Positions 8,553 to 34,122 of a DNA stretch of 35,042 bases are shown piece after piece. This DNA comes from Terriglobia bacterium. Its GTDB lineage: Bacteria; Acidobacteriota; Terriglobia; Terriglobales; Acidobacteriaceae. A model generated the notes under the pieces. It did no database searches. It worked only from the letters and a program-made list of their open reading frames with translations, and was not told where the DNA came from. Within the stretch, counting starts at the first letter, position 1, and each line of letters opens with the position of its first letter. The stretch covers positions 1 to 35,042 of the forward strand of contig JAIQFT010000045.1 in the NCBI GenBank assembly GCA_020073185.1, read 5' to 3'. Position numbers and translations under genes: made by a program.

Positions 8553-9149
8553 TTACAAGCGATAGCTCATGCGCGATTCGACAACCGTATCGGCAAGCTT
8601 CTTGTACAAGTGCGCGTTGTCGATAGCGACCGCCGCCTGGGCGGCAAAAGCGGTAGCGACGTCGAGGTCCCGCTCGGTAAATCCGGTTCCCGCCTTCTTG
8701 TTGATCATCTCAACCACCCCGATCACGCGGTCGCGGACGTCCAAGGGAACCGCCAGCAGAGAGCGAGTAACAAACCCCAGCGAGCGGTCGATGGCATCGG
8801 AGAAACGCGGGTCGGTGTGCGCCTCGTCCACGATGGTGGGTTTGTTATTCTTCAGGACCCAGCCTGCCACGCCGGTATCGGCAGGCATGCGCATGGTCTT
8901 GATTCTTCCCTCGGAATCTCCCGTGGCAACCTCAAAGGTAAGCTCGCGGCTGGCTTCGTCATACAACAGGAGAGAAGCGGCCTCAGCGCCGAGCAGATCG
9001 GCGGCCGCACCGATGATGGCGCGCAGCAGGTTCGGAAGGTTGAAGGTGGAGTTTAGTTGCACGCTGGACTGGACCAAGGCGCGGCGGATACGCCGTTCTT
9101 CCGCCAGATCGTGGGTGAGAGCCGCAACCTCGCTGATGGCCTGATTCAT
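8553..9149 (-). CDS. stand-alone GAF domain protein
   Basis: A 198-residue cytoplasmic protein. Residues 1-40 form a helical, probably coiled-coil segment, and residues about 38-185 form a GAF domain (LGAEAASLLLYDEA, GVAGWVLKNNKPTIVDEA, LLAVPLDVRDRVIGVVEMINK, FTERDLDVATAFAAQAAVAI). GAF domains bind cyclic nucleotides, tetrapyrroles or other small molecules and usually drive an attached kinase, cyclase or HTH domain. No such output domain is present here. Its ATG overlaps the stop of accC by 4 nt (ATGA), so it is translated with the carboxylase, and the TcmI-type cyclase follows 35 nt later. A role as a ligand-sensing partner of the biosynthetic enzymes is speculation. The domain call itself is clear. 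Confidence 0.85.
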   Translation of the reverse strand: MNQAISEVAALTHDLAEERRIRRALVQSSVQLNSTFNLPNLLRAIIGAAADLLGAEAASLLLYDEASRELTFEVATGDSEGRIKTMRMPADTGVAGWVLKNNKPTIVDEAHTDPRFSDAIDRSLGFVTRSLLAVPLDVRDRVIGVVEMINKKAGTGFTERDLDVATAFAAQAAVAIDNAHLYKKLADTVVESRMSYRL

Positions 9150-11101: not shown

Positions 11102-12817
11102 TCACTTCTGCTGCACACCCTCGGTAAACGACCCGAACCCGCGGAACCGCGCATAGCGCTGATCAATCAGTTCGCGCCCGCTCAGCTTTGCCAAAGCATC
11201 CAGATTCCTCTTCAGCGCTTCCTGCAGGGCCGCGGCAGCCCGGGCAAGATCCGTGTGCGCGCCCTCGGCCGGCTCGGGCACCAACTCGTCGGCAACGCCA
11301 AGCTTCAACAACTCACGGGCGGTGAGGCGGGAGGCCTCGGCGGCGCGTGGAGCGCGGGCCGCATCCTTGAAAAGAATGGTGGCGCATCCCTCGGGACTGA
11401 TCACCGAGTAGATGGCATTCTCCAGCATCAGCACGCGGTTCCCAACGCCGATGGCGAGCGCCCCACCGCTCCCACCTTCTCCGATGACCGTGCAGATGAT
11501 GGGCACCGGCAGACGGGCCATGACCAGCAGGTTGCGGGCAATGGCTTCGCTTTGGTTGCGTTCCTCCGCCTGCAAACCCGGATAGGCGCCCGGCGTATCG
11601 ATGAAGGTCAGAATCGGCAACTGCACGCGCCCCGCGTACTGCATCAGGCGCAATGCCTTCCAGTAGCCCTCGGGGTGCGGCATCCCGAAATTGCGCTCGA
11701 TGCTCTGTTTGGTCCCGCGTCCTTTCTGGTGTCCAACCACCATCACCGGCCGGCCTTCCAACAAGGCAAGCCCCCCCACAATCGACGGGTCATCCCGAAG
11801 GTGACGATCCCCGCGCAGCTCGGTAAAGCTGTCAAACAGCGCGCCGATATATTCGTAGAGATTCGGCCGGTCGGGATGTCGGGCAAGCTGAACGCATTCC
11901 CACACCGAGCGGGCTGGAGCCGGCTGGCTTGAGGCGGCACTGGCCGGAGTGGAGATCGCGGTCGGCACCTGCGGCTGAACGTGATATGCGAGAAGCTTCT
12001 TAAGGACGGAGGGCAACTCGGCGCGCGGAACGACCATGTCGATCTGGCCCTTTTCCATCAGGAACTCCGCCGTTTGAAAACCTTCGGGCAATTTCTGGCG
12101 GATGGTCTGCTCGATGACTTGCGGGCCGGCGAATCCGATATGGGCTTTCGGCTCCGCGATGATGACGTCGCCGAGAGTGGCAAAAGAGGCGCTCACGCCC
12201 CCGTAGGTCGGGTCGGAGAGCAAGGAAAGAAACGGCACTCCCGACTCGCCGAGCTTGGCGATGGCCGCCGAGGTCTTGGCCATCTGCATCAAGGAGATCG
12301 TGCCCTCCTGCATACGGGCACCACCGGAGGCAGAACACACCAGCACCGGCGTGTGGGTCTCGACGCCCAACTCAAGCGCCCGGCTCACCTTCTCTCCCAC
12401 CACCCCACCCATGCTTCCACCCATGAAGGTGAAGTCCAAGGCGCAGATGACGATGGGATAACCGCCAATGGCACCGGCGCCGTAGATCGCCGCTTCTCGC
12501 TCGCCCGACTTGCGGCGGCTCTCCGCCATCCGGTCCAGATATGGGATCGAATCATTGAATTGCAACGGATCGGTGGAGACCAGATCAGAGCCGCGTTCCT
12601 GGAACGATCCCGGGTCAAGCAAAAAGCGAATGCGTTCGCGAGCGCTCAAGCGAAAGTGAAAATTGCACTCCGGACATACCTTCAGGTTCTTCTGGAGCCG
12701 TTTGCAGTAAATGAACGCGCTGCAGTGACTGCACTTCACCCAACGGTCGGCGGGAATCGAAGCAAGCCGAGCTGCGAACTCCGTGGGTGCGGCTATCGGT
12801 CGCGGTTGTGCGGCCAT
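11102..12817 (-). CDS. accDA: fused acetyl-CoA carboxylase carboxyltransferase (beta-alpha, AccD-AccA)
   Basis: This 571-residue enzyme transfers the carboxyl group from biotin to acetyl-CoA, giving malonyl-CoA. It is AccD and AccA in one chain. The beta part (about 1-280) has the four-cysteine zinc ribbon (Cys29, Cys32, Cys48, Cys51), [11 protein letters not shown] and [14 protein letters not shown] Pro/Ala/Ser-rich linker (about 281-302) follows. The alpha part (about 305-571) has [45 protein letters not shown] and [15 protein letters not shown]. The alpha part lacks the first ~70 residues of a free AccA (the N-terminal helical region), as expected for a trimmed fusion. The start is ATG 12817 with GAGGGGG nine bases upstream. 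A TTG at 12835 would overlap the TPR gene. It is followed by accB and accC, so all activities of the enzyme are encoded in order. Confidence 0.93.
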
Positions 12818-12818
12818 G

Positions 12819-13763
12819 TCAGTGAACCCCCTCAACGGACTGCCACACGACAGCTTCCGAGTTGTGCTCTTCGGCGTATTCGTCCATCTCTTCGTGCAGA
12901 CGCCGCATCAACTCGGCGTCGCGCTCGGCGGCATCGAGCAGGCTGCCAAAAAATCCATCTTTCGCGTAGGCCAGGAAAGCCGTGGTCAGGCCAAAGCGGT
13001 CGCTGCGAGTAGCCTCGAGAGCGGCGTCCAAGGCGCCGCGCCAGTCCTTGCACCTGGCTCGGCACAAGACAATCCCGTGTTGGGCCATCACCTGCGCCGT
13101 CCGGTCGCGCTCGCGCAGAAGGTGAAGTGTCGCCTCCGCCTCGCTGTAACGCTGCAAGTGGAGATACAGGCGAGCAAGATCGTTCAGGACTCTGGGCGAC
13201 GCCTCGCCGCCAAATTGCTTGGACAGAACCTCTGCCGCGAGAGCAGGTTCGCCAATGGCTTGGTAGAGCTGAGCAAGCGCAAAGAGAACAGCTTTGTCCG
13301 CCGGACGCAGCGCTGCCGCGCGCTCCAGGGCCTGGCGGGCGCCCGTGGAGTTCCCATGGGCGAAGAGGGCATATCCAAGATCAATGAACAACTCCGGGGA
13401 ATTGGAGTCGCGGCGCGTAAGCTTTTCGAGAACCTCGATGGCTTCCTCCAGTTGCCCGATCGTCTGGAGTGCTTCTGCCAATTGGCGGGGGAGTTCCAGG
13501 TCGGATGGATCCAACGCCGCGGCCTTTCGAAAATTATTCGCGGCCTCCCGGAAGTCTCCTTCGGCGGCTGCGACCCTGCCTTGCAAGGCAGCGCAGTGAG
13601 GGCTGCGAGCCGCATCCGGCAAAGCGCCACAGCGTTCCCCCCAGGCCCGGGCATCATCCAATCTTCCTTGTTCCAGCGCCTCCAGGCCAGAGGAGTAGCA
13701 TGTGTCCACGGTCAACACTGCGCTCGGCTCTCCGGACTGCTTGGCCACCGATGCGTTGTTCAT
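12819..13763 (-). CDS. TPR-repeat protein in the polyketide operon
   Basis: A 314-residue, all-helical protein made of tetratricopeptide repeats. Repeating signatures of the type A-x-x-x-F-R-x-A-x-x-x-x-P are seen at [57 protein letters not shown] and [16 protein letters not shown]. Three or four further helical pairs make up the rest. There is no signal peptide or membrane span, so it should be cytoplasmic. TPR arrays hold protein partners together and have no catalysis of their own. The gene sits between the aromatase/cyclase and accDA, one base from the latter, with AAGGTG before its ATG. It has no counterpart that I know of in actinobacterial type II clusters. A scaffold linking the carboxylase to the synthase is possible but unproven. 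Confidence 0.85.
12827..12833 (-). promoter_or_regulatory. ribosome binding site setting the accDA start
   Basis: On the minus strand this reads GAGGGGG, nine bases before ATG 12817 and overlapping the last codons of the TPR gene. It favours the ATG over the in-frame TTG at 12835, and it implies that accDA translation is coupled to the TPR gene, whose TGA is one base from the ATG. Confidence 0.6.
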
Positions 13764-13826: not shown

Positions 13827-14288
13827 CTACGCCGCCGATCCACGAACCTGCTTTTCGATGCGTTCCTTGATGATGTTCATCTGCTTGTTGCTGTTGGCAT
13901 TGATGTAAACTTCCATCTGCGCATCGTTTGCCGGGGCTTGGGGTTTCATGGTGAATTCCTGCACCCAGCGCATGCGGGTTCCACCTTCCACCGCTTCGTA
14001 ATACCATTCGATATTCATGTACTCGAACGGCCCCGTTTCCACTCGGCGAGCCTTGACCGCGCGGTTGGGAGCGTCCGTCGTGCGCTCCGAAACCCAGCTC
14101 CACACTTTCCCGTTTTCGTCCGGGTGCATGGTAAGACGGAAGACGACGGTGTTTCCTCGGCGCTCCAAAATCTCCGCCGTGGCGTACTCGGTGAAGAGAT
14201 CGGGCCATTTCTCCACGTTATTGGTGATATCCCACACCGTATCGAGGGGAGCGCAAATCACGATCGAATTGTCGGTACGCACAGCCAT
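13827..14288 (-). CDS. aromatase/cyclase, SRPBCC fold (TcmN-N-terminal / WhiE-ORFVI type)
   Basis: A 153-residue single-domain aromatase/cyclase of the START/Bet v1-like family, which folds the nascent poly-beta-ketone on ACP and aromatises the first ring(s). Family hallmarks are AVRTDNSIVICAPLDTVWD at the N-terminus, NVEKWPDLFTEYA, FRLTMHPDENGKVWSWVSER, RRVETGPFEYMNIEWYYE, MRWVQEFTMKP and the C-terminal helix NSNKQMNIIKERIE. These segments agree closely with my memory of the spore-pigment enzyme WhiE ORFVI and the N-terminal domain of TcmN. That class acts on unreduced chains, consistent with the absence of a ketoreductase. The start is ATG 14288, 4 nt after the ACP stop, with GGGGTAA upstream. 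The longer frame has no homology. Confidence in the family is high. Confidence 0.93.
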   Translation of the reverse strand: MAVRTDNSIVICAPLDTVWDITNNVEKWPDLFTEYATAEILERRGNTVVFRLTMHPDENGKVWSWVSERTTDAPNRAVKARRVETGPFEYMNIEWYYEAVEGGTRMRWVQEFTMKPQAPANDAQMEVYINANSNKQMNIIKERIEKQVRGSAA

Positions 14289-14292
14289 GTAG

Positions 14293-14550
14293 TTACCCCG
14301 CTTGCTGCAAGCGACGGTTGGTGTAATCAATAGCCTGTCCAACGGTGTGCAGGTTGGCCACGTCCTCGTCCGGGATCACGAATCCGTAGCGCTGTTGGAC
14401 TTCGAGCTGAACTTCGACCAAGGCCAGCGAATCCAGCCCCATGTCTTCGAAAGATGCTGTCAGATCACTCTTGATCTGGGCTTCGGGCAACCGGACGCGC
14501 TTGACGAGTATGTCTTTGAGATCTTCAAACGTGAACACTTGTGCTGGCAT
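14293..14550 (-). CDS. acyl carrier protein of the type II polyketide synthase
   Basis: An 85-residue acyl carrier protein. The phosphopantetheine attachment motif is GLDSLALVEV with Ser41. The preceding acidic loop SFEDMG and the helix ending in RYGFVIPDEDVANLHTV are the usual ACP helices. It carries the growing poly-beta-ketone between KSalpha/CLF and the cyclases. The start is ATG 14550, preceded by GGAGGACTGT, a very strong ribosome binding site. This ATG lies inside the end of the patatin-type gene (26 nt overlap). The aromatase follows after 4 nt. It needs a phosphopantetheinyl transferase for activity, and none is in the window, so a housekeeping or unlinked enzyme must serve. The neighbours make this a polyketide ACP rather than the fatty-acid AcpP. 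Confidence 0.93.
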   Translation of the reverse strand: MPAQVFTFEDLKDILVKRVRLPEAQIKSDLTASFEDMGLDSLALVEVQLEVQQRYGFVIPDEDVANLHTVGQAIDYTNRRLQQAG

Positions 14551-16279
14551 ACAGTCCTCCGGAATATGTGAGTCCAAGGGATTGCGGATTGGCCAAGGTC
14601 CGCAACGCCGGAATCTGCTCTTCCATGGCAGCCCGCCCTGCGGCAAGGAACAGGTCAGCCAGTTGGAAATCCCGCCAGGTTCCCGGACCAAAGCGGGGGG
14701 TCACCACTACGTCGGCCAAGGCTGCATGGCGAGTACTACCGTCAAGCTGCATCATTTCCATGACCTCCAGCAGCGTATCCAGCACGCGCGAGCCGCGACT
14801 CTCGGAAACCGCGGCCACGGGAGTGCCCGCCGGCCAGACCGGCAGGGTGTCCCGGCTGATGAGGTTCACCGATATGACGAGATCGGCACCCGCTGCCCGA
14901 ACCGCTTCGGTCGGCACGGGCACCAGCGCGATTGCATCCACCAACCTTTGCGAGCCGAGCTGGTATGGGGGATACAATCCGGGTACCGCGCTGGCCGCCA
15001 TCAAGGCCTCCCATAGCGGACCTTCCGTGATCGGGGCCGGCTGCTTCAACTTCAGGTCGACAGCCATAACGACGAGTGGGATGACAACATCGGAGAAGGC
15101 AAGCCCATCGGTAGTTTCGTGCCACAGGCGCTTCACTTCATCGGTGCTGCTTGCCATGCCGCCAAACGACAGCTTGAACATCGCCGCGACAGTCTCCGGG
15201 GAAAACGCACGCCTCATGGCCGCTTCAACCCCTGCTGCGTCTTTCCCCAGAGCCAGCCACGAACCCACAATCGCGCCGATGCTGCTGCCCGCAACGTAGT
15301 CGATCGCATAACCGGCGGCTTCCAGTACATGCAGCGCGGCGGCGTGCGCGTATCCCTTGGCTCCACCCGCCCCCAGCGCTAATCCCAGCTTGGTTCGGGA
15401 CAGGTGCCTTCCCAACCATGCGATATCCCTGTCGGGAGACTCGGGATCGATAGTCCGGATCACCTTGAGGCCGCCGAGAGAACGAGTCGTCAACGAGCGG
15501 TTACGCTGCAGAAGCACTACTTCAGCGGTACGGCAGAGCTGAGCCGAGTTGAGACAAGCCGGCTCCGTGCCCAGCACAATCACCCGGTCTGCCTGTTCGA
15601 CCAGCGCCGATAGGTTGGCCTGACCGCTACTGGCAACAATGAAGACAAAGGCGTGCGAAGCGAGGAGATTATCCAGGCGGCCGAGCACCTCTTCTACACA
15701 GTGGTCCCGCTGCAATCGCAAGCTCGATGGCAGCTTCCCCGTGAGATCGACACAGGTGCTGGCACGCGGTGTGGCAGACTGCGCCGCCTCAATCACCTTG
15801 GCCACTTGCCAAGTCGCGCTCATGTCGGCGACCAGGGCGACCACTTCGCCGCGCCGGTGCCAGGTGGCAAACTGCACATCGGTTCGGGCGAGTCGCTGCA
15901 CCGCAATGCGAGCCAGATTGGCGAATAAGGGTGGATGTGCGGCGAGCATTGTCGCGAACCTCTCCCGGCTCAATTCCAACACCGTCGTAGGCAGGATCGC
16001 TTCCACGGTGGCAGAGTGCGGTTCTCCGCTAATCAGTGACATCTCCCCCACAACATCGTTCCGCCGCAGTCGTGCAATAATCCTCCGCCCTTCGGGCCGC
16101 TCTACCACTACGTGCGCCACCCCCTGCTCAATGACGAACAAGCTCGATGCAGGATCACCGCGGCGGCAAATCGGTTCACCAGTCGCAAACTGCCGCGGCT
16201 GAAGCAGAGTCTGGACCTGCTCCTGGATCTCCGGCTCCAAGCCTTCGAACAACGGTATTCGTCTCATATCCAGAGGCAT
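14525..16279 (-). CDS. cyclic-nucleotide-binding-type plus patatin-like serine hydrolase (NTE family)
   Basis: A 584-residue protein with three parts. Residues 1-130 form a cNMP-binding-type beta-roll (LEPEIQEQVQTLLQPRQFATGEPI, GEMSLISGEPHSATVEA). Residues 140-290 form a middle domain typical of NTE-like patatins (EVVALVADMS, HAFVFIVASS, QADRVIVLG). Residues 297-480 form a patatin domain with oxyanion loop LALGAGGAKGYAH and nucleophile motif GSSIG (Ser333). The catalytic Asp motif reads VDAIAL (Asp448) where DG(G/A) is usual. In the beta-roll, the Arg that normally contacts the nucleotide phosphate is replaced by His (EPHSATV), so nucleotide binding is doubtful. Start: ATG 16279, 22 nt after the CLF stop. 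ATG 16267 is an alternative. Its place between CLF and ACP suggests ester or thioester cleavage linked to the polyketide, but that is inference. Confidence 0.87.
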   Translation of the reverse strand: MPLDMRRIPLFEGLEPEIQEQVQTLLQPRQFATGEPICRRGDPASSLFVIEQGVAHVVVERPEGRRIIARLRRNDVVGEMSLISGEPHSATVEAILPTTVLELSRERFATMLAAHPPLFANLARIAVQRLARTDVQFATWHRRGEVVALVADMSATWQVAKVIEAAQSATPRASTCVDLTGKLPSSLRLQRDHCVEEVLGRLDNLLASHAFVFIVASSGQANLSALVEQADRVIVLGTEPACLNSAQLCRTAEVVLLQRNRSLTTRSLGGLKVIRTIDPESPDRDIAWLGRHLSRTKLGLALGAGGAKGYAHAAALHVLEAAGYAIDYVAGSSIGAIVGSWLALGKDAAGVEAAMRRAFSPETVAAMFKLSFGGMASSTDEVKRLWHETTDGLAFSDVVIPLVVMAVDLKLKQPAPITEGPLWEALMAASAVPGLYPPYQLGSQRLVDAIALVPVPTEAVRAAGADLVISVNLISRDTLPVWPAGTPVAAVSESRGSRVLDTLLEVMEMMQLDGSTRHAALADVVVTPRFGPGTWRDFQLADLFLAAGRAAMEEQIPALRTLANPQSLGLTYSGGLYASTSVHV

Positions 16280-16301: not shown

Positions 16302-17540
16302 TCACGCAGCGTACTTCCGCAGCACCAGCGAACCGTTGAAACCACCGTACCCGCGGCTGTTGACCAGTACCGTTCGTACCGGCATCTTTCGTTCTTTCTC
16401 CCTGGTAAAGCTCAGTTCGCAGCCCTTTGCCGGCTTTCCCAGGTTCACAATCGGGGGAACTACGTCGTCCCTCATGCTGAGCAGAGCGGCGGCAACGTCG
16501 AGCGGCGCCCCGCCCGCATACAGACGTCCGACCATTGACTTGGGAGCGGCGATGGGAACTTGCGAAGCTCGGGAGCCGAACACTTGCCGAATGGCCTCGG
16601 CCTCCAATGCATCGCCCTTCAAGTCGCCGGCGGCATCCGCGAAGATGACGTCCACGTCGTTGGGAGTGATTCCGGCGCGCGCAATCGCTTCCCGCATGGC
16701 CCGCGCATACTGCCGGCCGTCGGGAGCGGGCTTGGCGTAGTGATATCCGTCCTGGGTGGTGCAGTATCCCAGGATCTCGCCGTAGATATGCGGAGCTCCC
16801 CTCTTCTTGGCATGCTCGAGTTCCTCGACGATGAGAATGGCGCCGCCTTCGCCCGGCACATAGCCGTTGGCGTTTTCGTCAAAAGGCCGGTAGGCGAGGG
16901 CAGGATCCTTCTGCTTGCTCAGCAGGCCGTTCTGCATCTGGCAAACCAACGCATAGGGACAAAGCGGCGCCTCGGTCCCGCCGCTGACCACCAGGTCGAC
17001 CCCGCGGCGAATGTTTCTCCAGGAGTGGGCCAGGGCTTCCACGCCACCGGCACCTTCGGAAAGGACGACGCCGCATGGACCCTTCATCCCCCACTTGATC
17101 GCGATCTGTCCGGTGGTGGCGGCGTAGAACCATGCGATCGACTGGTAGGCTCCAACGTAAAGAACGCCCTTTCCCCAGAGATTTCCAATTTCGCGCTGGC
17201 CAAACTCATTGCCGCCCGAAGAACTCGCGGTAATGACGCTCATCTGGTAGGGCTGCGCCTTCTTGGGATCGAAGTCGGCATCGCGGAGAGCCATGTCGGT
17301 GGCCGCCAGCGCCAACCAAGTCCAGCGATCAGTCTGCGCGATGAGGCGCCCGTCAATGTGATCCTCAGCTTTAAAGCCATTCACCTCACCGGCAAGCTGA
17401 GTCGTGTACGGAGAAGGGTCGAAATGGGTAATCCGCCGGATACCAGTCTTACCCTGTCGCGTAGCCGTCCAGTAGGCCTCAGTGCCGATGCCGCTGGGCG
17501 CCACCACTCCAATTCCGGTAATGACCGCGCGTCGGCTCAT
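16302..17540 (-). CDS. type II polyketide chain length factor (KSbeta)
   Basis: A 412-residue ketosynthase-like partner of KSalpha that shapes the cavity and sets chain length. Family marks are VITGIGVVAPSGIG at the N-terminus, SSSGGNEFGQREIGNLW, AYQSIAWFYAATTGQIAI and GEGGAILIVEE. It lacks the KS triad. The active-site Cys region reads LSEGAGGVEA, with Gly163 where KSalpha has Cys and most chain length factors have Gln. The usual KS His motif NAHGSGT is replaced by FADAAGD. The gatekeeper positions known from actinorhodin CLF (109, 112 and 116 there) appear to be Asn111, Gly114 and Ile118 here. The gene overlaps KSalpha by 4 nt (ATGA), which is the usual coupling of this heterodimer. Confidence 0.94.
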   Translation of the reverse strand: MSRRAVITGIGVVAPSGIGTEAYWTATRQGKTGIRRITHFDPSPYTTQLAGEVNGFKAEDHIDGRLIAQTDRWTWLALAATDMALRDADFDPKKAQPYQMSVITASSSGGNEFGQREIGNLWGKGVLYVGAYQSIAWFYAATTGQIAIKWGMKGPCGVVLSEGAGGVEALAHSWRNIRRGVDLVVSGGTEAPLCPYALVCQMQNGLLSKQKDPALAYRPFDENANGYVPGEGGAILIVEELEHAKKRGAPHIYGEILGYCTTQDGYHYAKPAPDGRQYARAMREAIARAGITPNDVDVIFADAAGDLKGDALEAEAIRQVFGSRASQVPIAAPKSMVGRLYAGGAPLDVAAALLSMRDDVVPPIVNLGKPAKGCELSFTREKERKMPVRTVLVNSRGYGGFNGSLVLRKYAA

Positions 17541-18808
17541 GCTCGCGCCTCCGAAGGGCGTGTGAAAATCATGGCGGACTGGAATCCGCCGAACCCGCTT
17601 CCAGTTGAGAGCACGGCATCAACTTTCTTGTGCCGCGCCACGTTCGGCGTGTAGTCCAAGTCGCATTCGGGATCGGGAATCTCGTAGTTTGCGGTTGGCG
17701 GAATGACGCCGTGCTCGATAACCAAGGCACAGGTAGCCATTTCCAGGGCACCGATGGCGCCGAGCGAATGGCCAATCATGGACTTAATGGAACTGATCGG
17801 AATGTGATACGCCTGTTGTCCCAGCGAGCGCTTGAAGGCAGCCGTCTCGTGACGGTCGTTTTGCTTGGTTCCCGATCCATGCGCGTTGATATAGCCGATG
17901 TCCGAAGGCTTGATTCCGGCCTGGTGCATGGCATCCACAATGGCTTCGGCCATCTCGACCCCATCCGGACGCAGGCCGGTCATGTGATAGGCGTTGCCAC
18001 GGCTGGAATAGCCGCCCACTTCGCAGTAAATGTGCGCGCCCCGCGCCAGCGCGTGATTCATCTCTTCCAGGATGAGCACCGCACTGCCTTCGCCCATGAC
18101 AAAGCCATCGCGTTTCAGGTCAAAGGGCCGCGAGGCGTGCGCCGCGTCGTCATTGCGGGTCGAGGTGGCCTTGATCGGCTCGAAACATCCGATGGCGATG
18201 GGAGATACAGGCGCCTCCGCGGCGCCGGCGATGACAATATCCGCTTCCCCGTCCTGAACCAGGTAGAAGCCGTAACCGATGGCATCAATACCAGAGGTGC
18301 ATCCCGTGGAAACCACCGTCGCCGGGCCGTGGGCGTGAAAGCGCGAGGCCAGTTCAGAAACCAGGCTGCTCGGAATCAGGGCTTCATACAGAAACGGCCA
18401 GGCGCGCTTAGCGTCCACCAGCCATTGTTTGCCGGAGTCGCTTACAGCCACGTAGCCTAGCTCCAGGTTGATGGTCGCCCCAACCGCCGACCCCATGGTG
18501 ACCCCCATGCGGTCGTGATCCACTGCGTCCAACGCGAGGCCGCTGTCCTTCATCGCCTCGTTAGCCGCAGCCACCGCGAACTGAATGGAGCGATCCATCC
18601 GCTTGGCTTCTGATTCATCCAGTCCCGCGAGCGCCGGATTGAAGTCGCATTCCGCCGCGATCTGGGAGCGAAACCCGGTTGCGTCAAATAGCGTGAGCCG
18701 CCGCGTGGCCGTCCGGCCAGCGGTAATCGTGTCCCAGAAGGCGTTCCTGCTTGTGCCGCCGGGTGCCACTATGCCAATACCAGTAACGGCTGCTCTTCGG
18801 GTGGCCAT
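17537..18808 (-). CDS. type II polyketide ketosynthase alpha subunit (KSalpha)
   Basis: This is the 423-residue condensing enzyme of an aromatic polyketide synthase. The catalytic Cys170 lies in VVSTGCTSGIDA, His310 in NAHGSGT, Lys342 in SSIKSMIG, and His347 in MIGHSLGAIGALE. The N-terminal AAVTGIGIVAPGG and the C-terminal STGSGFGGFQSA are also typical of KSalpha. PFDLKRDGFVMGEGSAVLIL is a common KSalpha signature. It should elongate malonyl-ACP units together with the chain length factor, with which it overlaps by 4 nt. The ATG is preceded by GAGGTGAT at 6 nt, the best ribosome binding site in the cluster. Sequence style is that of spore-pigment and other type II systems rather than of the FabF of fatty-acid synthesis, since a chain length factor, cupin and dedicated cyclases adjoin it. 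Confidence 0.95.
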   Translation of the reverse strand: MATRRAAVTGIGIVAPGGTSRNAFWDTITAGRTATRRLTLFDATGFRSQIAAECDFNPALAGLDESEAKRMDRSIQFAVAAANEAMKDSGLALDAVDHDRMGVTMGSAVGATINLELGYVAVSDSGKQWLVDAKRAWPFLYEALIPSSLVSELASRFHAHGPATVVSTGCTSGIDAIGYGFYLVQDGEADIVIAGAAEAPVSPIAIGCFEPIKATSTRNDDAAHASRPFDLKRDGFVMGEGSAVLILEEMNHALARGAHIYCEVGGYSSRGNAYHMTGLRPDGVEMAEAIVDAMHQAGIKPSDIGYINAHGSGTKQNDRHETAAFKRSLGQQAYHIPISSIKSMIGHSLGAIGALEMATCALVIEHGVIPPTANYEIPDPECDLDYTPNVARHKKVDAVLSTGSGFGGFQSAMIFTRPSEARA

Positions 18809-18912: not shown

Positions 18913-19293
18913 CTATTCTGTGTCGACGTGGCCCATGTCCGGCTTGGGAGCCAAGGGTCCGAGGTGGAAAACGATAAATACTTCCTCGCTACCCTCATTC
19001 ATCAGCCGGTGTTTCACATTGATAGGGATAAGCAAAGCCTGGCCCTGTTTGAGTTCGTTTCTAACGCCGTCGAGGCGAGCGATCAGGTTGCCTTGGACAA
19101 CGTAGATGAACTCCTCCGAGTACGGGTGATAGTGTTCGGTAATCCGATCTCCCGGTGCGATTGTCGCCACACCCATGAAACCGGAAGTTGAACCTACCGT
19201 CTTCGGCGAGAGCAGGACGCGGACGTCCCCACCACGTCGCGTATCGTGAGCGGCATCGTCGAGTGCCTTGATTTTTGCTACGGCTGTGGCCAT
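18913..19293 (-). CDS. cupin, CurC / WhiE-ORFII type polyketide synthesis protein
   Basis: A 126-residue single cupin. The conserved beta-barrel motifs are [18 protein letters not shown] (metal-type His/His/Glu set) and [16 protein letters not shown] (third His). The segments [20 protein letters not shown] and, at the end, [17 protein letters not shown] are what I remember of the cupins that precede the ketosynthase in actinobacterial spore-pigment clusters (WhiE ORFII, CurC). Their biochemical role is not settled. The gene stands 104 nt before KSalpha and 87 nt after bioA. The start is ATG 19293 with AGGGG five bases upstream. The frame is open further back but without homology. The cupin is the strongest marker that this is a whiE-like system rather than another aromatic polyketide type. 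Confidence 0.92.
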
Positions 19294-19318
19294 ATCACCC
19301 CTACAGCTCTGCCTTAGG

Positions 19319-19346
19319 AAAATAGCACGGCAAAAGCTGTCTTCAA
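19319..19346 (-). promoter_or_regulatory. candidate internal sigma70-like promoter before the cupin
   Basis: In the 87-nt gap between bioA and the cupin the minus strand carries TTGAAG (19341-19346), a 16-base spacer and TATTTT (19319-19324), each 4 of 6 to the consensus. The gap is one of the largest in the run, so a second start for the polyketide genes is plausible. The match alone is weak. Confidence 0.3.
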
Positions 19347-19380
19347 GTGGCAAGAGCCTAGTACCACCCCGGCTGTACTG

Positions 19381-27995: not shown

Positions 27996-28327
27996 AAATC
28001 CTCCTGTGGGTTGGCCCATAAATACTTGGATGACCGGATTGAACGGTACGCACGAACGGCGGCCATTTTTTTTCTTTGACTGTTTGGGGACGAGTGCTGG
28101 CAGTGAGAAACGACGGCACCAAGTAAATTGCCCCGAATCCTTCCCAGTAAGTCGCGAATCAAACTTGATCATTGGCCTGTAGGGCCTGGGGCGAGGAGAC
28201 AGAGCATCTATTCCCGTTCCACAAGAAACGCCACTCCGTCGCTCGTTGTCGCGAATGAAGCATCGGTGCTGATTGCCAGCACTGCCTCATGGACTGCAAA
28301 CACTTTTCTTCTGAGCAGGGAGAACTC
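27996..28327. other. divergent intergenic region between the AhpD-like gene and the RND operon
   Basis: This 332-base stretch has no recognisable gene. It must hold promoters for both flanking genes. I see no good -35/-10 pair. It contains a ten-base inverted repeat, AGTGCTGGCA at 28093-28102 and TGCCAGCACT at 28274-28283, and the second copy is part of a small hairpin (TGCTG/CAGCA at 28267-28281). Confidence 0.4.
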
Positions 28328-29452
28328 ATGGCGAAAAGAATGATCCTGATGTTGGGTGTGACGGCGTTACTGCTCGCGACCTTGGCTTTCGTAAAATTCA
28401 AGCAAGTTGGGTCGGCGGCGCATGCCGCCGCGTTTCAGCCGCCTCCGGAAGCGGTCACGAGCATTGTCGCGGGACGCCAGCAGTGGCCGGCAACAATGGG
28501 CGTGATCGGCACCATGGAGGCCGTGCGCGGGGTCACGGTCAGTGCGGACCTTCCCGGCGTCGTCGAGCGAATCTTGTTTGACTCGGGGCAGCCGGTCCGC
28601 GCAGGAGACGTGCTGGTCGAGCTCGATACCCGGCAAGAGCGAGCCCAACTGGCTTCGCTGGAGGCACAGCGCGACTTGGCGCGTGTGAACTATGGCCGGA
28701 TGCAGCAATTGGTGAATGCGGGCGTGATCTCTCGGATGGAGTACGACCAGGCGACGGCTCAGCAAAAGGCCACCGAAGCAAATGTGGCGGAGGTCCGTGC
28801 CACGATTGAGCGAAAAACCATCCGCGCCCCCTTTACCGGAATCCTGGGCATCCGCAAAGTCAACCTCGGGCAGTACCTTGCAGCCGGCAGCGCGGTGGTG
28901 CCGCTGCAGTCCTTCAACCCGATTTATGTGGACTTCGGCGTACCCCAGCAGGCAGCCGGACAAGTGAGAGTCGGCGGCAACTTGCGCGTCGTCTCGGAAG
29001 ATCTCGCGGGCCACGTGTTCACGGGCCGCGTCACGGCTCTCGATTCGGTGGTGGACGAAACGACCCGAAATGTTCAAGTGCAAGCGACGCTCTCCAATCC
29101 GGAAGGAAAATTGCGCCCCGGCATGTTCGTTCAGGTGGATGTGGGCCTGGGAGCAAGCCGCACGGTGATTACACTGCCGGCATCCGCGATCAGTTACGCC
29201 CCGTATGGCGACTCGGTCTTTATCATCACGGATCTCAAGGATCAGAACGGCAAAACCTACCGCGGCGTGCGCCAACAGTTCGTCAAACTGGAAGGGTCGC
29301 GCGGCGACCAGGTGGCGGTCGTTTCGGGCGTGAACCCTGGCGATGAAGTTGTGACCTCGGGCGTGTTCAAGCTGCGCAACGGCGCCGCCGTCCAAGTCAA
29401 CAACAAAGTCCAGCCCGGAAACAATCCGGCTCCCAAGCCCGAGGACAGCTAA
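28328..29452 (+). CDS. RND efflux periplasmic adaptor (MexH/MdtA type)
   Basis: A 374-residue membrane fusion protein. Residues 5-20 are a signal anchor. GTMEAVRGVTVSADLPGVV begins the lipoyl-like half, and VELDTRQERAQLASLEAQRD begins the short helical hairpin (about 95-150). TIRAPFTGILGIRKVNLGQYL is the second lipoyl half. The beta-barrel holds DSVVDETTRNVQVQATL with LRPGMFVQVDV, and the membrane-proximal domain ends in VVTSGVFKLRNGAAVQV. The start is ATG 28328 with GGGAG placed five bases upstream. An upstream in-frame ATG lacks a site and adds a non-signal extension. Its stop abuts the ATG of the RND pump, so the two are one operon. No outer-membrane channel gene is attached. It may share the TolC-type protein encoded at 6736-8091 or another. 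Confidence 0.92.
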   Translation: MAKRMILMLGVTALLLATLAFVKFKQVGSAAHAAAFQPPPEAVTSIVAGRQQWPATMGVIGTMEAVRGVTVSADLPGVVERILFDSGQPVRAGDVLVELDTRQERAQLASLEAQRDLARVNYGRMQQLVNAGVISRMEYDQATAQQKATEANVAEVRATIERKTIRAPFTGILGIRKVNLGQYLAAGSAVVPLQSFNPIYVDFGVPQQAAGQVRVGGNLRVVSEDLAGHVFTGRVTALDSVVDETTRNVQVQATLSNPEGKLRPGMFVQVDVGLGASRTVITLPASAISYAPYGDSVFIITDLKDQNGKTYRGVRQQFVKLEGSRGDQVAVVSGVNPGDEVVTSGVFKLRNGAAVQVNNKVQPGNNPAPKPEDS

Positions 29453-32400
29453 ATGAAGTTCACGGACCTGTTCATCAAGCGGCCGGTCCTGGCGATCGTC
29501 GTCAACCTGGTTATCCTGATCGCCGGCCTGCAGGCGATCCGCTCGCTGAGCGTGCGTCAGTACCCGCGCAGCGACATCGCGGTGGTCCAAGTCTCGACGA
29601 CGTATGTGGGGGCCAACGCGGACTTGGTACGCGGATTCATCACCACCCCGCTGGAGCGCGTGATTGCCAGTGCCGACGGCATCGACTACATGGAATCTTC
29701 GAGCGCTCAGGGCCTCAGCACGATCACCGTGCACCTGAAGCTCAACTACGACACCAACGCGGCGCTCACGCAGATTCAGGCCAAGGTAGCCCAGGTACGC
29801 AACGATCTGCCGCCTGAGGCCGAGGCGCCGGTAATCGATCTGCAAACGGCGGACAATCAGTTTGCTGCGATGTATTTAGACTTCTCGTCGGCCGAGCTCG
29901 ATCAGAACCAGATTACCGACTATCTGACGCGCGTCGTACAACCCAAGCTGAGTGCCGTCAGCGGAGTGCAGCGCGCCGATATCCTCGGCGACCGTACTTT
30001 CGCGATGCGGATTTGGCTGAAGCCCGACAGAATGGCGGCACTCGGCATTGCGCCGTCCGCAGTCCACGACGCGTTGGCGCGGAACAACTACCTCTCCGCA
30101 CTCGGCAGCACCAAGGGCTCGATGGTTTCGGTGAACCTGGTTGCCAACACCAACCTGAGCACGCCGGACGAATTCCGCCAACTAGTCGTGAAGCAGGACA
30201 AGGGAGTCATCGTTCGCTTGGGAGAGATCGCGGACGTTGTACTCGGCGCGGAGAATTACGATCAGGAAGTGCGCTTCAACGGGGAGACGGCGACCTTCAT
30301 GGGAGTTTGGGTGCTTCCGACCGCCAACTCGCTGGAAGTGATCAAGCACGTGCGAGAGGCGATTCCCGGCATTCAGGCGCAGTTACCTACGGGGATGAAG
30401 GTTGGCATCCCGTACGACTCGACCGCGTATATCCAGGACGCCATCAACGAGGTGCTCCGGACGCTCACCGAGACCCTGGTGATTGTCATTGTGGTGATTT
30501 TTCTCTTCCTGGGGTCGTTCCGTTCCGTGCTCATCCCGGTCGTCGCCATCCCGATTTCATTGATTGGCGCCGTGTTCCTGATGCTCGCGGCCGGCTTCAC
30601 CATTAATCTGTTGACCCTGCTTGCCATCGTGCTCTCGGTGGGCCTCGTGGTGGATGACGCGATCGTGATGGTGGAGAACGTCGAGCGGCACATTCACTTG
30701 GGTAGTCCTCCGTCACGGGCCGCCCTCGAAGCCGCCCGCGAGTTAGTGGGCCCGATCATCTCGATGACCATCACGCTGGCCGCGGTGTATGCGCCCATCG
30801 GGATTCAAGGCGGCCTGACCGGAGCGCTGTTCCGCGAGTTCGCGTTTACTCTCGCGGGGGCCGTCATCGTATCTGGAATCGTTGCGCTGACGCTTTCCCC
30901 AATGATGGGATCGAAGTTGCTGCGCGCGGGCGCCAGCGAGCGCGGCTTCGCCGGCATGATCAATCGCCACTTCGAGCGCGTGCGCCAGTTGTACACGCGA
31001 AACCTGGCCGGGACGCTCCGCTACCAGCCAGTGATTCTCACGCTATGGGCGATCGTGGTCCTGCTGATGATTCCGTTCTACATGTTCTCGCAGCGGGAAC
31101 TGGCGCCAGCCGAGGATCAGGGGGTAGTCTTCGGGGTCATCCAGGCTTCGCCGAACTCGACGATCGATCAGACGAACCTGTATACGAAGCAATTGTACGA
31201 CGTCTATCGCGCTTTCCCGGAGAGTCAAAGCATCTTTCAGATCACGTCGCCGACGGGCGGCTTCGGCGGCATGGTGACGAAACCGTGGAGCGAAAGAAAA
31301 AAGACGGCGCAACAACTGTTGCTGGAATCCACCGGGCCGCTGTCGAAGATCGCGGGCATCCGAGTGATCCCGCTAACTCCGCCCTCATTGCCTGGTGGCG
31401 GAAATTTCCCGGTTGATTTCGTGATTGCCTCGCCGGCCGAGCCACAGCAACTTGTCGGCTTCGCCAAGCAACTTGTGGGCAAGGCCTTTGCCAGTGGCCT
31501 GTTTATCTACGCCGACTCTGACCTGAAGTTCGACCAGCCGCAGGCCGAAGTCGTATTCGACCGAGACAAGCTCCGATCCCAGGGGGTTGATCTAAGCCAG
31601 GCCGGCCAGGATCTTTCCACGCTCCTCGGCGGGAACTACGTCAACCGCTTCAGCATTCAGGGGCGGAGCTACAAGGTCATTCCGCAGGTCAAGCGCGCGG
31701 AACGATTGACGCCCGAACAACTCTCGCAAATCTACATAACCGGATCGCAGAACAAGCTCGTGCCGCTGTCCACGTTTGCCAGCCTGCGAACCACAACCGA
31801 GCCGCGCGAGCTGAAGAAGTTTCAGCAGCTCAATGCGGTGCGCATCCAGGGCGTGATCCCGCCAGGAGTGCCGCTGGATCGAGCGCTGCGAGTGCTGGAA
31901 GACGAGGCCAAGACAATCCTGCCGCAGGGTTTCACGGTTGACTACGCGGGCGAGTCACGCCAGCTCCGCGTCGAAGGCAGCAAGTTTCTCGGCACTTTCT
32001 TGTTGTCGGCGATCTTGATTTACCTGGTGCTGGCGGCGCAGTTCGAGAGCTTCCGCGATCCGCTCATCATTCTTGCAGGCTCGGTGCCGCTCGCTCTTTC
32101 CGGAGCGCTCCTGTTCTCGTTCCTGGGCCTGACGACGCTCAACATCTACAGCGAGGTTGGCCTGATCACGCTGGTCGGTTTGGTGTCGAAAAACGGCATC
32201 CTGATTGTGGAGTTTGCCAACCAATTGCAGGAGAAAGGGAGCGACAAGCTGGCTGCGATTATCGAGGCGGCCGGGACACGATTGCGGCCAATCCTGATGA
32301 CGACGGCAGCCACCGTGCTCGGTCACTTTCCCCTGGTGCTGGCCAGGGGCCCAGGAGCTGGAGCTCGAAACAGCATCGGCATCATGCTGGTGAGCGGCAT

Positions 32401-32536
32401 GATCATCGGAACATCATTTACGCTGTTCGTAGTGCCCTCCATCTACATGCTGGTGGCTAAGACGAGGGTACCGACTGCAGAGCAGGATGTGGACTCGGAA
32501 ACTGCGCTCTCCGCACCGACCGACGTTGCAGCCTAG
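29453..32536 (+). CDS. RND multidrug efflux pump, inner-membrane transporter (HAE1 type)
   Basis: A 1027-residue, twelve-helix proton-driven pump. The N-terminus FTDLFIKRPVLAIVVNLVI is typical. The first periplasmic loop has IDYMESSSAQGLSTITVHL. The proton-relay pair Asp401-Asp402 is in helix 4 (LSVGLVVDDAIVMVENVERH). The second half repeats the fold, with GLVSKNGILIVEFANQL and RLRPILMTTAATVLGHFPLV near the end. Length is normal for AcrB/MexI relatives. The gene begins directly at the stop of the adaptor gene. Substrates of this family are drugs, dyes and other amphiphiles, and specificity cannot be read from sequence. Being about 2 kb from the polyketide genes it could help resist their product, but nothing in the sequence proves that. 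Confidence 0.95.
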   Translation: MKFTDLFIKRPVLAIVVNLVILIAGLQAIRSLSVRQYPRSDIAVVQVSTTYVGANADLVRGFITTPLERVIASADGIDYMESSSAQGLSTITVHLKLNYDTNAALTQIQAKVAQVRNDLPPEAEAPVIDLQTADNQFAAMYLDFSSAELDQNQITDYLTRVVQPKLSAVSGVQRADILGDRTFAMRIWLKPDRMAALGIAPSAVHDALARNNYLSALGSTKGSMVSVNLVANTNLSTPDEFRQLVVKQDKGVIVRLGEIADVVLGAENYDQEVRFNGETATFMGVWVLPTANSLEVIKHVREAIPGIQAQLPTGMKVGIPYDSTAYIQDAINEVLRTLTETLVIVIVVIFLFLGSFRSVLIPVVAIPISLIGAVFLMLAAGFTINLLTLLAIVLSVGLVVDDAIVMVENVERHIHLGSPPSRAALEAARELVGPIISMTITLAAVYAPIGIQGGLTGALFREFAFTLAGAVIVSGIVALTLSPMMGSKLLRAGASERGFAGMINRHFERVRQLYTRNLAGTLRYQPVILTLWAIVVLLMIPFYMFSQRELAPAEDQGVVFGVIQASPNSTIDQTNLYTKQLYDVYRAFPESQSIFQITSPTGGFGGMVTKPWSERKKTAQQLLLESTGPLSKIAGIRVIPLTPPSLPGGGNFPVDFVIASPAEPQQLVGFAKQLVGKAFASGLFIYADSDLKFDQPQAEVVFDRDKLRSQGVDLSQAGQDLSTLLGGNYVNRFSIQGRSYKVIPQVKRAERLTPEQLSQIYITGSQNKLVPLSTFASLRTTTEPRELKKFQQLNAVRIQGVIPPGVPLDRALRVLEDEAKTILPQGFTVDYAGESRQLRVEGSKFLGTFLLSAILIYLVLAAQFESFRDPLIILAGSVPLALSGALLFSFLGLTTLNIYSEVGLITLVGLVSKNGILIVEFANQLQEKGSDKLAAIIEAAGTRLRPILMTTAATVLGHFPLVLARGPGAGARNSIGIMLVSGMIIGTSFTLFVVPSIYMLVAKTRVPTAEQDVDSETALSAPTDVAA

Positions 32537-32577
32537 GGAGAAAGTTCCGCTAGCGGCCGTGGGAAAGACCACTGAGC

Positions 32578-34122
32578 ATGAAGATCTTAGTTACAGGTAG
32601 CAGCGGTCATTTGGGCGAAGCGTTGGTTCGCACCTTGAGGAACACCCACCGCGAAGTCATCGGCATCGACATTGTTCCCTCGGAGTTCGCGGACGAGGTT
32701 GGGTCAATCGTTGACCGGCAATTTGTCAAACGATGCACGGAAGGTGTCGGCGCTGTAATCCATACTGCGACCCTGCACAAACCCCACGTCGTCACGCACA
32801 GTCGGCAGAGCTTTGTTGACACCAACATCACGGGCACGCTGAATCTTCTGGAGGAGGCCGCGATTGCCGGTGTTGGCTCGTTTGTGTTCACCAGCACGAC
32901 CAGTGCCTTCGGGCGCGCGCTCAGTCCGCCCCCTGGAAGCCCGGCGGCCTGGGTGACCGAGGATGTTACTCCTGTTCCACGGAACATCTATGGCGTAACC
33001 AAGACCGCGGCCGAAAACTTCTGCGAGTTATTCCATCGGAAGCTTGGGCTCGCGTGCCTCATCTTGAGAACCTCGCGGTTTTTTCCTGAAGAGGATGACC
33101 GCGAAGAGACGCGCAAGGCCTACGACGATGACAACATCAAGGTGAACGAATTTCTCTACCGACGCGTGGATCTGGAAGACGTAGTGAGCGCTCATCTGCT
33201 CGCTATCGAGAAGGCTCCCATAATCGGCTTCGGCCGTTATATTGTCAGTGCGACCACACCGTTTTCGCAGGACGATCTGTTCGACTTGCGCGCCAACGCA
33301 CCCCTGGCGCTGAAGCGAAGGGTTCCGGACTATGAAGCTGAGTACGCGCGCCGCCGCTGGAAGATGTTTCCCGGCATCGACAGGGTGTATGTCAACCAAC
33401 GAGCCCGGAACGACCTCGGTTGGCGACCCCGATATGATTTCAGGTACGTGCTCGACACGCTGAGCGCTGGCTCTGATCCGCGCAGCCCGCTCTCGCGCAC
33501 CGTGGGGTCCAAGGGTTACCACTCCCGCAAGTTTGCAGCAGCGCCATATCCCGCTGCCGATTTCGAGGTGTCGTCACCGGTCGGCGCGGATACGAGTTAC
33601 ACACCGTACGGGACATATACGACTATTCCAAGCGGCACGCAGCTTGCAATCCGAACCAATGAGGTCATCGATTCTGCAAAGAGCGTGTCAGGACAGAACT
33701 TTTCCGCGGTGATGTACGCGGACGCCGTGGACAGCTCAGGCGCGATTGCAATTCGGAAGGGTTCCGACGTTGAATTGGCAATTCGAAGCACGACTGGATC
33801 CGATCTGATGTTGGACATCGATTCCGTGACAGTAGGAGGACAGCGCTACGTCGTCAGTGCCAGCGACTTGAAACAGAAGGGCGGTGAGGGTATTGGAGCA
33901 AACCGCCGGACCGCAGAAATGGTTGGCGGCGGTGCAGCGGTGGGCGCCGTCATTGGCGCTATTGTGGGCGGCGGGAAAGGTGCCGCCATCGGTGCGGGTG
34001 TCGGCGCAGCCGGCGGTGCCGGAGTGGTAGTCCTAACCAAAGGCAAGGCAGTGAGAGTCCCGGCGGAAACTATACTGACCTTCAAACTCGATGCGGACCT
34101 GCGTTTGCAACCGGCTCGTTAG
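32578..34122 (+). CDS. NAD(P)-dependent epimerase fused to a Gly-zipper envelope-type domain
   Basis: A 514-residue protein with two unrelated parts. Residues 1-326 are an extended SDR of the sugar-nucleotide epimerase type: nucleotide motif TGSSGHLG (residues 6-13), catalytic Tyr138 and Lys142 in [18 protein letters not shown], and an end ([18 protein letters not shown]) that looks like the natural C-terminus of this SDR group. Residues about 348-514 begin [19 protein letters not shown] and include a beta-rich region and a glycine-zipper (about 449-486, repeated GAxxGA). Such domains are normally in secreted or envelope proteins with a signal peptide, and here none precedes it. No stop or frameshift separates the parts. 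It lies 41 nt after the RND pump gene and may be in that operon. The NAD-dependent substrate is unknown. Confidence 0.85.

What the first reader, a model, noticed from the sequence alone, without database searches (positions are those of the whole stretch)
14525..16279. cNMP-patatin hydrolase inserted between the chain length factor and ACP, with altered key motifs
Seen: the nucleophile motif GSSIG is present, the Asp motif is VDAIAL instead of DG(G/A), and the nucleotide-phosphate Arg of the beta-roll is His. The gene overlaps the ACP start by 26 nt, so it is tightly tied to the synthase. Known: patatin-like enzymes cleave lipid esters, and aromatic synthases often lack an obvious release enzyme. 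Inference: it could release the chain, edit mis-primed ACP, or acylate or deacylate the product. The beta-roll may sense a ligand other than cAMP.
Basis: partly seen in the sequence, partly recalled or inferred. Interest (0 to 1): 0.6.

Follow-up and report, generated by a model that had tools for sequence, protein, structure and literature searches.

The report
Patatin hydrolase inside an aromatic synthase
A lipase-type enzyme with a sensor-like front end sits inside a small family of bacterial gene clusters that make aromatic compounds, next to the carrier protein, so it probably helps release or clean the growing chain.

Summary
Window 14525-16279 (-) encodes 584 aa: an N-terminal cyclic-nucleotide-binding (CNBD) fold and a C-terminal patatin domain, between the chain length factor (CLF) and the ACP, overlapping the ACP start by 26 nt.

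The gene belongs to the synthase. Of 80 related loci found through the CLF, the eight closest all carry an ortholog between CLF and ACP; in the other 72 none was found. The eight are Thermoleophilia- or Acidimicrobiaceae-type MAGs. The patatin-bearing synthases form one clade (0.999), as do their patatins (1.0).

Ser333 and Asp448 are invariant in 37 aligned patatin domains; a confident model (pLDDT 90.6) matches PlpD. The 'altered Asp motif' is a Gly-to-Ala change private to this copy; orthologs read VDG(L/I)ALVPVP. The CNBD phosphate Arg is lost in four of nine copies, so cAMP sensing is unlikely to be a shared role.

Best reading: a dedicated acyl-ester or acyl-ACP hydrolase (release or editing) of a whiE/tcm-like type II synthase. 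Component and position are shown; substrate is inferred. An acyl-CoA ligase beside it in seven of eight relatives keeps a fatty-starter role open. Three literature searches found no report of this pairing.

The parts
14525..16279 (-). CNBD-patatin protein, 584 aa (CNBD about residues 1-140, linker domain about 145-285, patatin domain about 286-565)
14525..15424 (-). patatin domain used for the structure model; holds Ser333 and Asp448
14293..14550 (-). acyl carrier protein, 85 aa, start overlaps the patatin stop by 26 nt
   Evidence: PP-binding 44.6 bits on the longer ORF; ribosome site and start
16302..17540 (-). chain length factor (CLF)
   Evidence: best solved match actinorhodin CLF 1tqy_B, E 8e-110; Gly in place of the KS Cys
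17537..18808 (-). ketosynthase KS-alpha with STGCTSG active site
13827..14285 (-). SRPBCC aromatase/cyclase of WhiE/TcmN type
   Evidence: 3tl1, 3tvr, 2kf2 and TcmN entries at E 1e-52 to 1e-55
18913..19353 (-). cupin (whiE-ORFII-like by position; that name is recalled)
   Evidence: Cupin_2 63.5 bits; 57-75% identical upstream of KS-alpha in the 8 closest clusters
11102..12835 (-). AccD-AccA fusion, supply gene of the same run
   Evidence: ACCA 399 bits
12819..13763 (-). TPR protein between cyclase and AccDA

Best explanation
The gene encodes a serine hydrolase of the patatin fold that is a co-inherited part of one clade of whiE/tcm-like type II polyketide synthases. It most likely works on acyl chains carried by the neighbouring ACP: Ser333, activated by Asp448, takes the acyl group from the thioester and passes it to water, either releasing the finished chain or clearing mis-primed or stalled ACP. 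The CNBD and linker are probably a regulatory or docking module that is losing its nucleotide site. Shown: gene content, order, co-inheritance, predicted fold, conserved Ser, Asp and oxyanion motifs. Inferred: activity, substrate, regulation.
For: Ortholog between CLF and ACP in 8 of 8 closest clusters and no patatin hit at E 0.01 in the other 72 loci; one synthase clade 0.999 and one patatin clade 1.0; Ser and Asp invariant in 37 of 37 domains; confident patatin model, PlpD Z 31.0, 2.9 A, 243 residues, 26% identity; Ser333/Asp448 at the PlpD Ser/Asp. Editing of acyl-ACP has precedent with other folds: PksD (PMC11775670, passages), the R1128 acyltransferase homologue and EncL (titles in a reference list). 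PksD and malonyl transferases share the broad fold at Z about 9.
Against: Characterised patatins such as PlpD and NTE are lipid hydrolases (PMC11116518, PMC6995513, passages). An acyl-CoA ligase neighbours the gene in 7 of 8 relatives, which suits a fatty-acid route. 72 related synthases manage without the gene in the DNA seen. The Z of about 9 to acyl-ACP enzymes is only a little above the level that the tool's note calls common. The window copy has the private Gly-to-Ala change beside Asp448.
Confidence: 0.42

Rival explanations
1. Starter supply: it is a lipase that frees fatty acids from membrane lipid (or from fatty acyl-ACP); an acyl-CoA ligase activates them as starter units, so the product carries an alkyl chain.
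For: A ligase 53-56% identical to that of L083 lies between CLF and patatin in 7 of 8 relatives (L080-L086, L083 itself included). Known patatins cleave lipid esters.
Against: The window and L087 lack the ligase in the cluster; the window genome's best match to it is 34%. L087 is the basal branch, so the patatin does not depend on the ligase.
Confidence: 0.2
2. Tailoring: it acylates or deacylates the finished product, or transfers the polyketide to or from a lipid, after release.
For: Patatin-fold enzymes can act on oxygen esters (searches list phospholipases as the nearest solved structures); some are transacylases (recalled).
Against: Position against the ACP rather than among tailoring genes; no acylated product is known.
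Confidence: 0.13
3. The window copy is catalytically weak or dead and serves as a scaffold or regulator.
For: Gly after Asp448 is Ala only here (36 of 37 have Gly); CNBD Arg is His.
Against: Ser, Asp and the oxyanion loop are intact and the frame is open; the seven full orthologs have the full motif.
Confidence: 0.12
4. Defence effector: a cyclic-nucleotide-activated phospholipase as in CBASS or Pycsar systems.
For: Nearest solved structures after PlpD are CapE and CapV by Foldseek; the CNBD matches Pycsar TIR models at up to 54 bits and the patatin part a phospholipase effector at 25 bits.
Against: None of 10 other window proteins scanned matches a cyclase; only weak matches of the TPR protein were found. 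The neighbours are synthase genes in all nine clusters.
Confidence: 0.02
5. Artefact: chance neighbour or a contaminating contig.
For: In the window's phylum only the window's own genome has it (1 of 396).
Against: Same neighbours in nine clusters. The contig carries DNA 92% identical to a same-genus genome over window 28089-33556, and its GC (59.9%) is near four 20-kb stretches of the genome (60.6-63.2%).
Confidence: 0.02

Closest known systems
PlpD patatin domain of Pseudomonas aeruginosa (5fqu, 5fya)
   Same: Patatin fold, Z 31.0 over 243 residues at 26% identity; Ser and Asp align
   Different: PlpD is an outer-membrane fusion with a barrel and POTRA (PMC11116518, passages) and reads VDGG; ours carries a CNBD and reads VDAI
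NTE/PNPLA6-type CNBD-patatin esterases
   Same: CNBD in front of a patatin domain
   Different: Human NTE has a transmembrane segment and three putative CNBDs (PMC6995513, passages); ours has one Pfam CNBD. L087 carries an NTE-like gene beside its own PKS patatin, 25% identical to the window protein
whiE / tetracenomycin type II synthases
   Same: Cupin, KS-alpha, CLF, ACP and TcmN/WhiE-type cyclase
   Different: Patatin between CLF and ACP; carboxylase, biotin-type genes and a phosphoketolase on the same strand
Acyl-ACP editing hydrolases (PksD; R1128 acyltransferase homologue; EncL)
   Same: Proposed role: removing acyl groups from ACP; PksD shares the broad fold at Z 9.0, 178 residues, 14% identity
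   Different: PksD uses a Ser-His dyad in a malonyl-transferase-type fold; ours has the patatin Ser and Asp

Membership tests
Patatin domain (PF01734) | Profile score over the curated cut-off | tested here: met
   83 bits against 27.7
Patatin domain (PF01734) | Oxyanion loop, GxSxG nucleophile and catalytic Asp | tested here: met
   GAGGAKG, GSSIG, Asp448; Ser and Asp 37 of 37
Patatin domain (PF01734) | Ser-Asp dyad in contact distance | tested here: inconclusive
   Residues align with PlpD in a confident model; coordinates are not returned, so no distance
Patatin domain (PF01734) | Gly after the Asp (usual consensus, recalled; I do not treat it as defining) | tested here: not met
   Ala in the window; Gly in the 7 full orthologs and L176 and in 36 of 37 domains
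Patatin phospholipase (enzyme) | Lipid ester hydrolysis | not testable with these tools
   Needs an assay
cAMP-binding CNBD | CNBD fold | tested here: met
   78 bits, cut-off 27.5; CRP Z 21.2
cAMP-binding CNBD | Phosphate-binding Arg | tested here: not met
   His in the window; Arg in 5 of 8 orthologs. Filed as CNBD fold only, not as a cAMP receptor
NTE/PNPLA6 family | Three CNBDs before the catalytic domain | tested here: not met
   One Pfam CNBD stretch
Type II PKS minimal set | KS-alpha with Cys, CLF without it, ACP | tested here: met
   STGCTSG; SEGAGG; PP-binding
whiE/tcm-like synthase | TcmN/WhiE-type first-ring cyclase | tested here: met
   E 1e-52 to 1e-55 to solved members
PksD-type acyl hydrolases | Malonyl-transferase-type fold with Ser-His dyad | tested here: not met
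   Patatin sequence and fold with Ser and Asp; similarity of role only
CBASS/Pycsar effectors | Nucleotide cyclase partner in the locus | tested here: inconclusive
   No cyclase match in 10 other window proteins scanned with PADLOC; not every ORF was scanned

The most novel reading that the evidence does not exclude
A patatin-fold serine hydrolase is the dedicated chain-release or proofreading enzyme of a clade of type II aromatic synthases, acting on acyl-ACP under control of a CNBD that now senses something other than cAMP, for instance the polyketide or an acyl group. This would be a hydrolase class new to type II polyketide chain release.
Probability: 0.2. Interest if true: 0.72.

Novelty: new variant of a known kind. 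Interest (0 to 1): 0.5.

Why it matters
How type II aromatic synthases free their product from the ACP is often left open (general knowledge; in a 2025 review the search words patatin, chain release, hydrolase and offload did not occur in the main text, while thioesterase occurred four times and termination once). A conserved hydrolase fixed next to the ACP in a clade of clusters gives that question a test with two proteins. The window copy also puts such a synthase in what appears to be an acidobacterium, inside an otherwise actinobacterial clade.

Tried and rejected
Scanning viral and genome contigs with the patatin alone found no relative: exact-peptide patterns from one divergent sequence were too narrow, and a CLF alignment solved it. 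That scan kept the best 80 of 290 relatives, so 210 weaker ones were not looked at. Of the 72 loci without the gene, 10 are shorter than 20 kb, so absence there is less firm. A full-length model from 8 sequences was poor in the patatin half (pLDDT 60.5 overall); a domain model from 37 sequences replaced it. The genome holds no detectable 16S rRNA, so the phylum is inferred from Acido-Lenti-1 RNAs; a plasmid search with the neighbouring RND gene did not help. CBASS/Pycsar membership was considered and not supported. Contamination was considered and rejected. A fixed partnership with the ligase was lowered because window and L087 lack it. The patatin tree does not settle the order inside the clade (supports 0.07 to 0.77 on the nodes that place the window); the synthase tree does better (0.98 and 0.945). 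That tree has 79 tips: the window, L045 and 77 of the 80 loci; L133, L142 and L157 were dropped for lack of an adjacent KS-CLF pair. The class samples contained the already known genomes, so 7 of 399 and 1 of 296 are not unbiased frequencies; they show only that no further member turned up.

Full report
What is there. The finding sits in a long run of genes on the minus strand, about 24 kb. It begins with a phosphoketolase and genes whose Pfam domains fit biotin synthesis (radical SAM with BATS, two aminotransferases, an AAA_26 protein; the Bio names are mine). Then come cupin, KS-alpha, CLF, the CNBD-patatin gene, ACP, an SRPBCC cyclase, a TPR protein, an AccD-AccA fusion, a biotinyl protein, a biotin carboxylase, a GAF protein and an export set (outer-membrane efflux, HlyD and ABC-2 types). 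The cyclase matches the WhiE and TcmN aromatase/cyclases at E 1e-52 to 1e-55 (the name WhiE for 3tl1, 3tvr and 2kf2 is recalled, the listing says 'polyketide cyclase'). The CLF's best solved match is the actinorhodin CLF. So this is a whiE/tcm-like type II synthase, apparently with its own malonyl-CoA supply.

The observation. Coordinates, motifs and the 26-nt overlap are right. The ACP start has a clear ribosome site, GGAGGACTGT-ATG. In the seven relatives with both genes on one contig the junction runs from a 14-nt overlap (L081) to a 95-nt gap (L087), with L084 ambiguous. Tight packing is common; overlap is not a fixed feature.

Is the gene part of the system? A genome scan with a two-sequence CLF alignment (window and L045) returned the best 80 of 290 relatives. 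The eight closest (CLF 59-66% identical, L080-L087) come from MAGs whose titles name Actinobacteria or Actinomycetota, Thermoleophilaceae, Solirubrobacterales, Thermoleophilia and Acidimicrobiaceae. All eight carry a relative of this patatin downstream of the CLF. In seven it is followed by ACP and cyclase on the same contig. In L086 the gene runs off the contig end; a C-terminal half on another contig of the same genome is followed by ACP and cyclase. The seven full orthologs are 46-52% identical over their length and 57-63% over the patatin domain. None of the 72 other loci has a hit even at E 0.01, with the caveat that 10 of them are under 20 kb.

Trees. In a KS-alpha plus CLF tree of 79 tips the nine patatin-bearing clusters form one clade (0.999). 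The window lies inside it (0.98), beside the seven ligase-bearing clusters (0.945), with L087 at the base. In a patatin-domain tree of 39 sequences the same nine form one clade on a long stem (1.0). Gene and synthase have travelled together. Searches for further members found none: 1 of 396 genomes of the window's phylum, its own (single protein, E 1e-60), 7 of 399 in the class of G654 and 1 of 296 in the class of G658 (profile, E 1e-80). The last two counts consist of genomes already known, so they are not frequencies. The next best protein in 149 genomes of the phylum is 30% identical. A more distant KS-CLF pair in the same order (L045, 42 and 41% identical) has no such gene in the DNA fetched around it.

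What the motifs say. The oxyanion loop GAGGAKG and G(S/A)SIG are conserved in the window and the seven full orthologs and in the L086 partner half. Across 37 aligned domains Ser and Asp are invariant, and the Gly after Asp is missing only in the window. The orthologs read VDG(L/I)ALVPVP. The CNBD Arg is kept in five of eight orthologs and is His, Tyr or Gln in three; L083 has also lost the preceding Glu. A shared cAMP switch is unlikely.

Structure. The domain model is confident (mean pLDDT 90.6, pTM 0.88). Foldseek and VIA-align both put the PlpD patatin domain first (Z 31.0, 2.9 A, 243 residues, 26% identity), and a profile alignment puts Ser333 and Asp448 at the PlpD Ser and Asp. Malonyl transferases and the ACP acyl hydrolase PksD follow at Z about 9, a little above the level (under 8) that the tool's note treats as common. 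The front half of the weaker full-length model matches CRP-type CNBDs (Z 21.2). Active-site distances were not measured.

Mechanism. Shown: a conserved, catalytically plausible patatin fixed between CLF and ACP. Inferred: it removes acyl groups from the ACP. Precedent for the role exists with other folds: PksD clears acetyl-ACP (PMC11775670, passages), and an R1128 acyltransferase homologue and EncL are named as editing enzymes of type II synthases (titles in the reference list of PMC12664062). Against it, PlpD and NTE act on lipids (PMC11116518 and PMC6995513, passages). Seven of eight relatives carry an acyl-CoA ligase between CLF and patatin, which suits a fatty-starter route. That ligase is absent from the window and L087, and the window genome's best match to it is 34%, so the patatin does not need it here.

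Origin. The window genome is acidobacterial by inference only: it holds 97 Acido-Lenti-1 matches at E 0.001, 72 of them over the cut-off, against 0 of 14 control genomes (only 150 of 1319 candidates were scored), and no 16S was found. The contig is genuine: window 28089-33556 is 92% identical in DNA to a same-genus genome, where other genes lie to the left of that stretch, and that genome's best listed match to the CLF is 33%. The synthase region has the host's GC (60.6%), while the seven actinobacterial loci measured have 67-75%, so a transfer, if there was one, is old or came through another host. A survey that reports over 6000 type II clusters mentions a single non-actinobacterial CLF inside the large actinobacterial clade (PMC10132072, passages); this would be another.

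Literature. Searches for type II polyketide with patatin and cyclic nucleotide-binding (two of three terms), patatin-like with polyketide and chain release, and patatin-like phospholipase with biosynthetic gene cluster and acyl carrier protein listed no paper whose title suggests this pairing; one search listed none at all. Only open-licence PMC papers were searched.

Noticed in passing
window 1389-25928 (-): Phosphoketolase, biotin-type genes, acetyl-CoA carboxylase subunits, the synthase and an ABC-2/HlyD/efflux export set all lie on one strand, as if one run of genes brought its own malonyl-CoA supply and export. Carboxylase genes also neighbour many of the 72 actinobacterial clusters.
   Followed up: partly
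window 16302-17540 (CLF): The CLF position aligned with the KS Cys, usually Gln (recalled), is Gly in the window and in L080-L086, Gln in L087; over 79 aligned pairs it is Q 26, G 21, S 18, A 10, T 2, R 1, E 1.
   Followed up: partly
window 8553-9149 (-) and L080:1022-1579: A GAF-domain protein near the synthase is 49% identical to one near the L080 cluster and shares the C-terminal SRMSYRL tail.
   Followed up: no
L087:11625-13454 (-): A second, NTE-like CNBD-patatin gene with the standard DGG motif lies on the other strand next to the L087 cluster.
   Followed up: partly
L080:15215-16216 (-) and L087:3409-5778 (+): L080 has a FabD malonyl transferase (over the NCBIfam cut-off) beside the cluster; an ORF in L087 contains a stretch that looks like FabD by eye.
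   Followed up: partly
L045:8504-14244: A distant KS-CLF pair in the same order is followed by an alpha/beta-hydrolase-like ORF where the window has the patatin, and is preceded by two CRP-like ORFs (by eye).
   Followed up: no
G000, many contigs: 97 matches to the Acido-Lenti-1 RNA family in one genome, 72 over the cut-off; a very high copy number.
   Followed up: no
G000:C43, C51, C82: The genome also holds several large ketosynthase-bearing open frames of about 1500 to 3000 aa, probably type I synthases.
   Followed up: no
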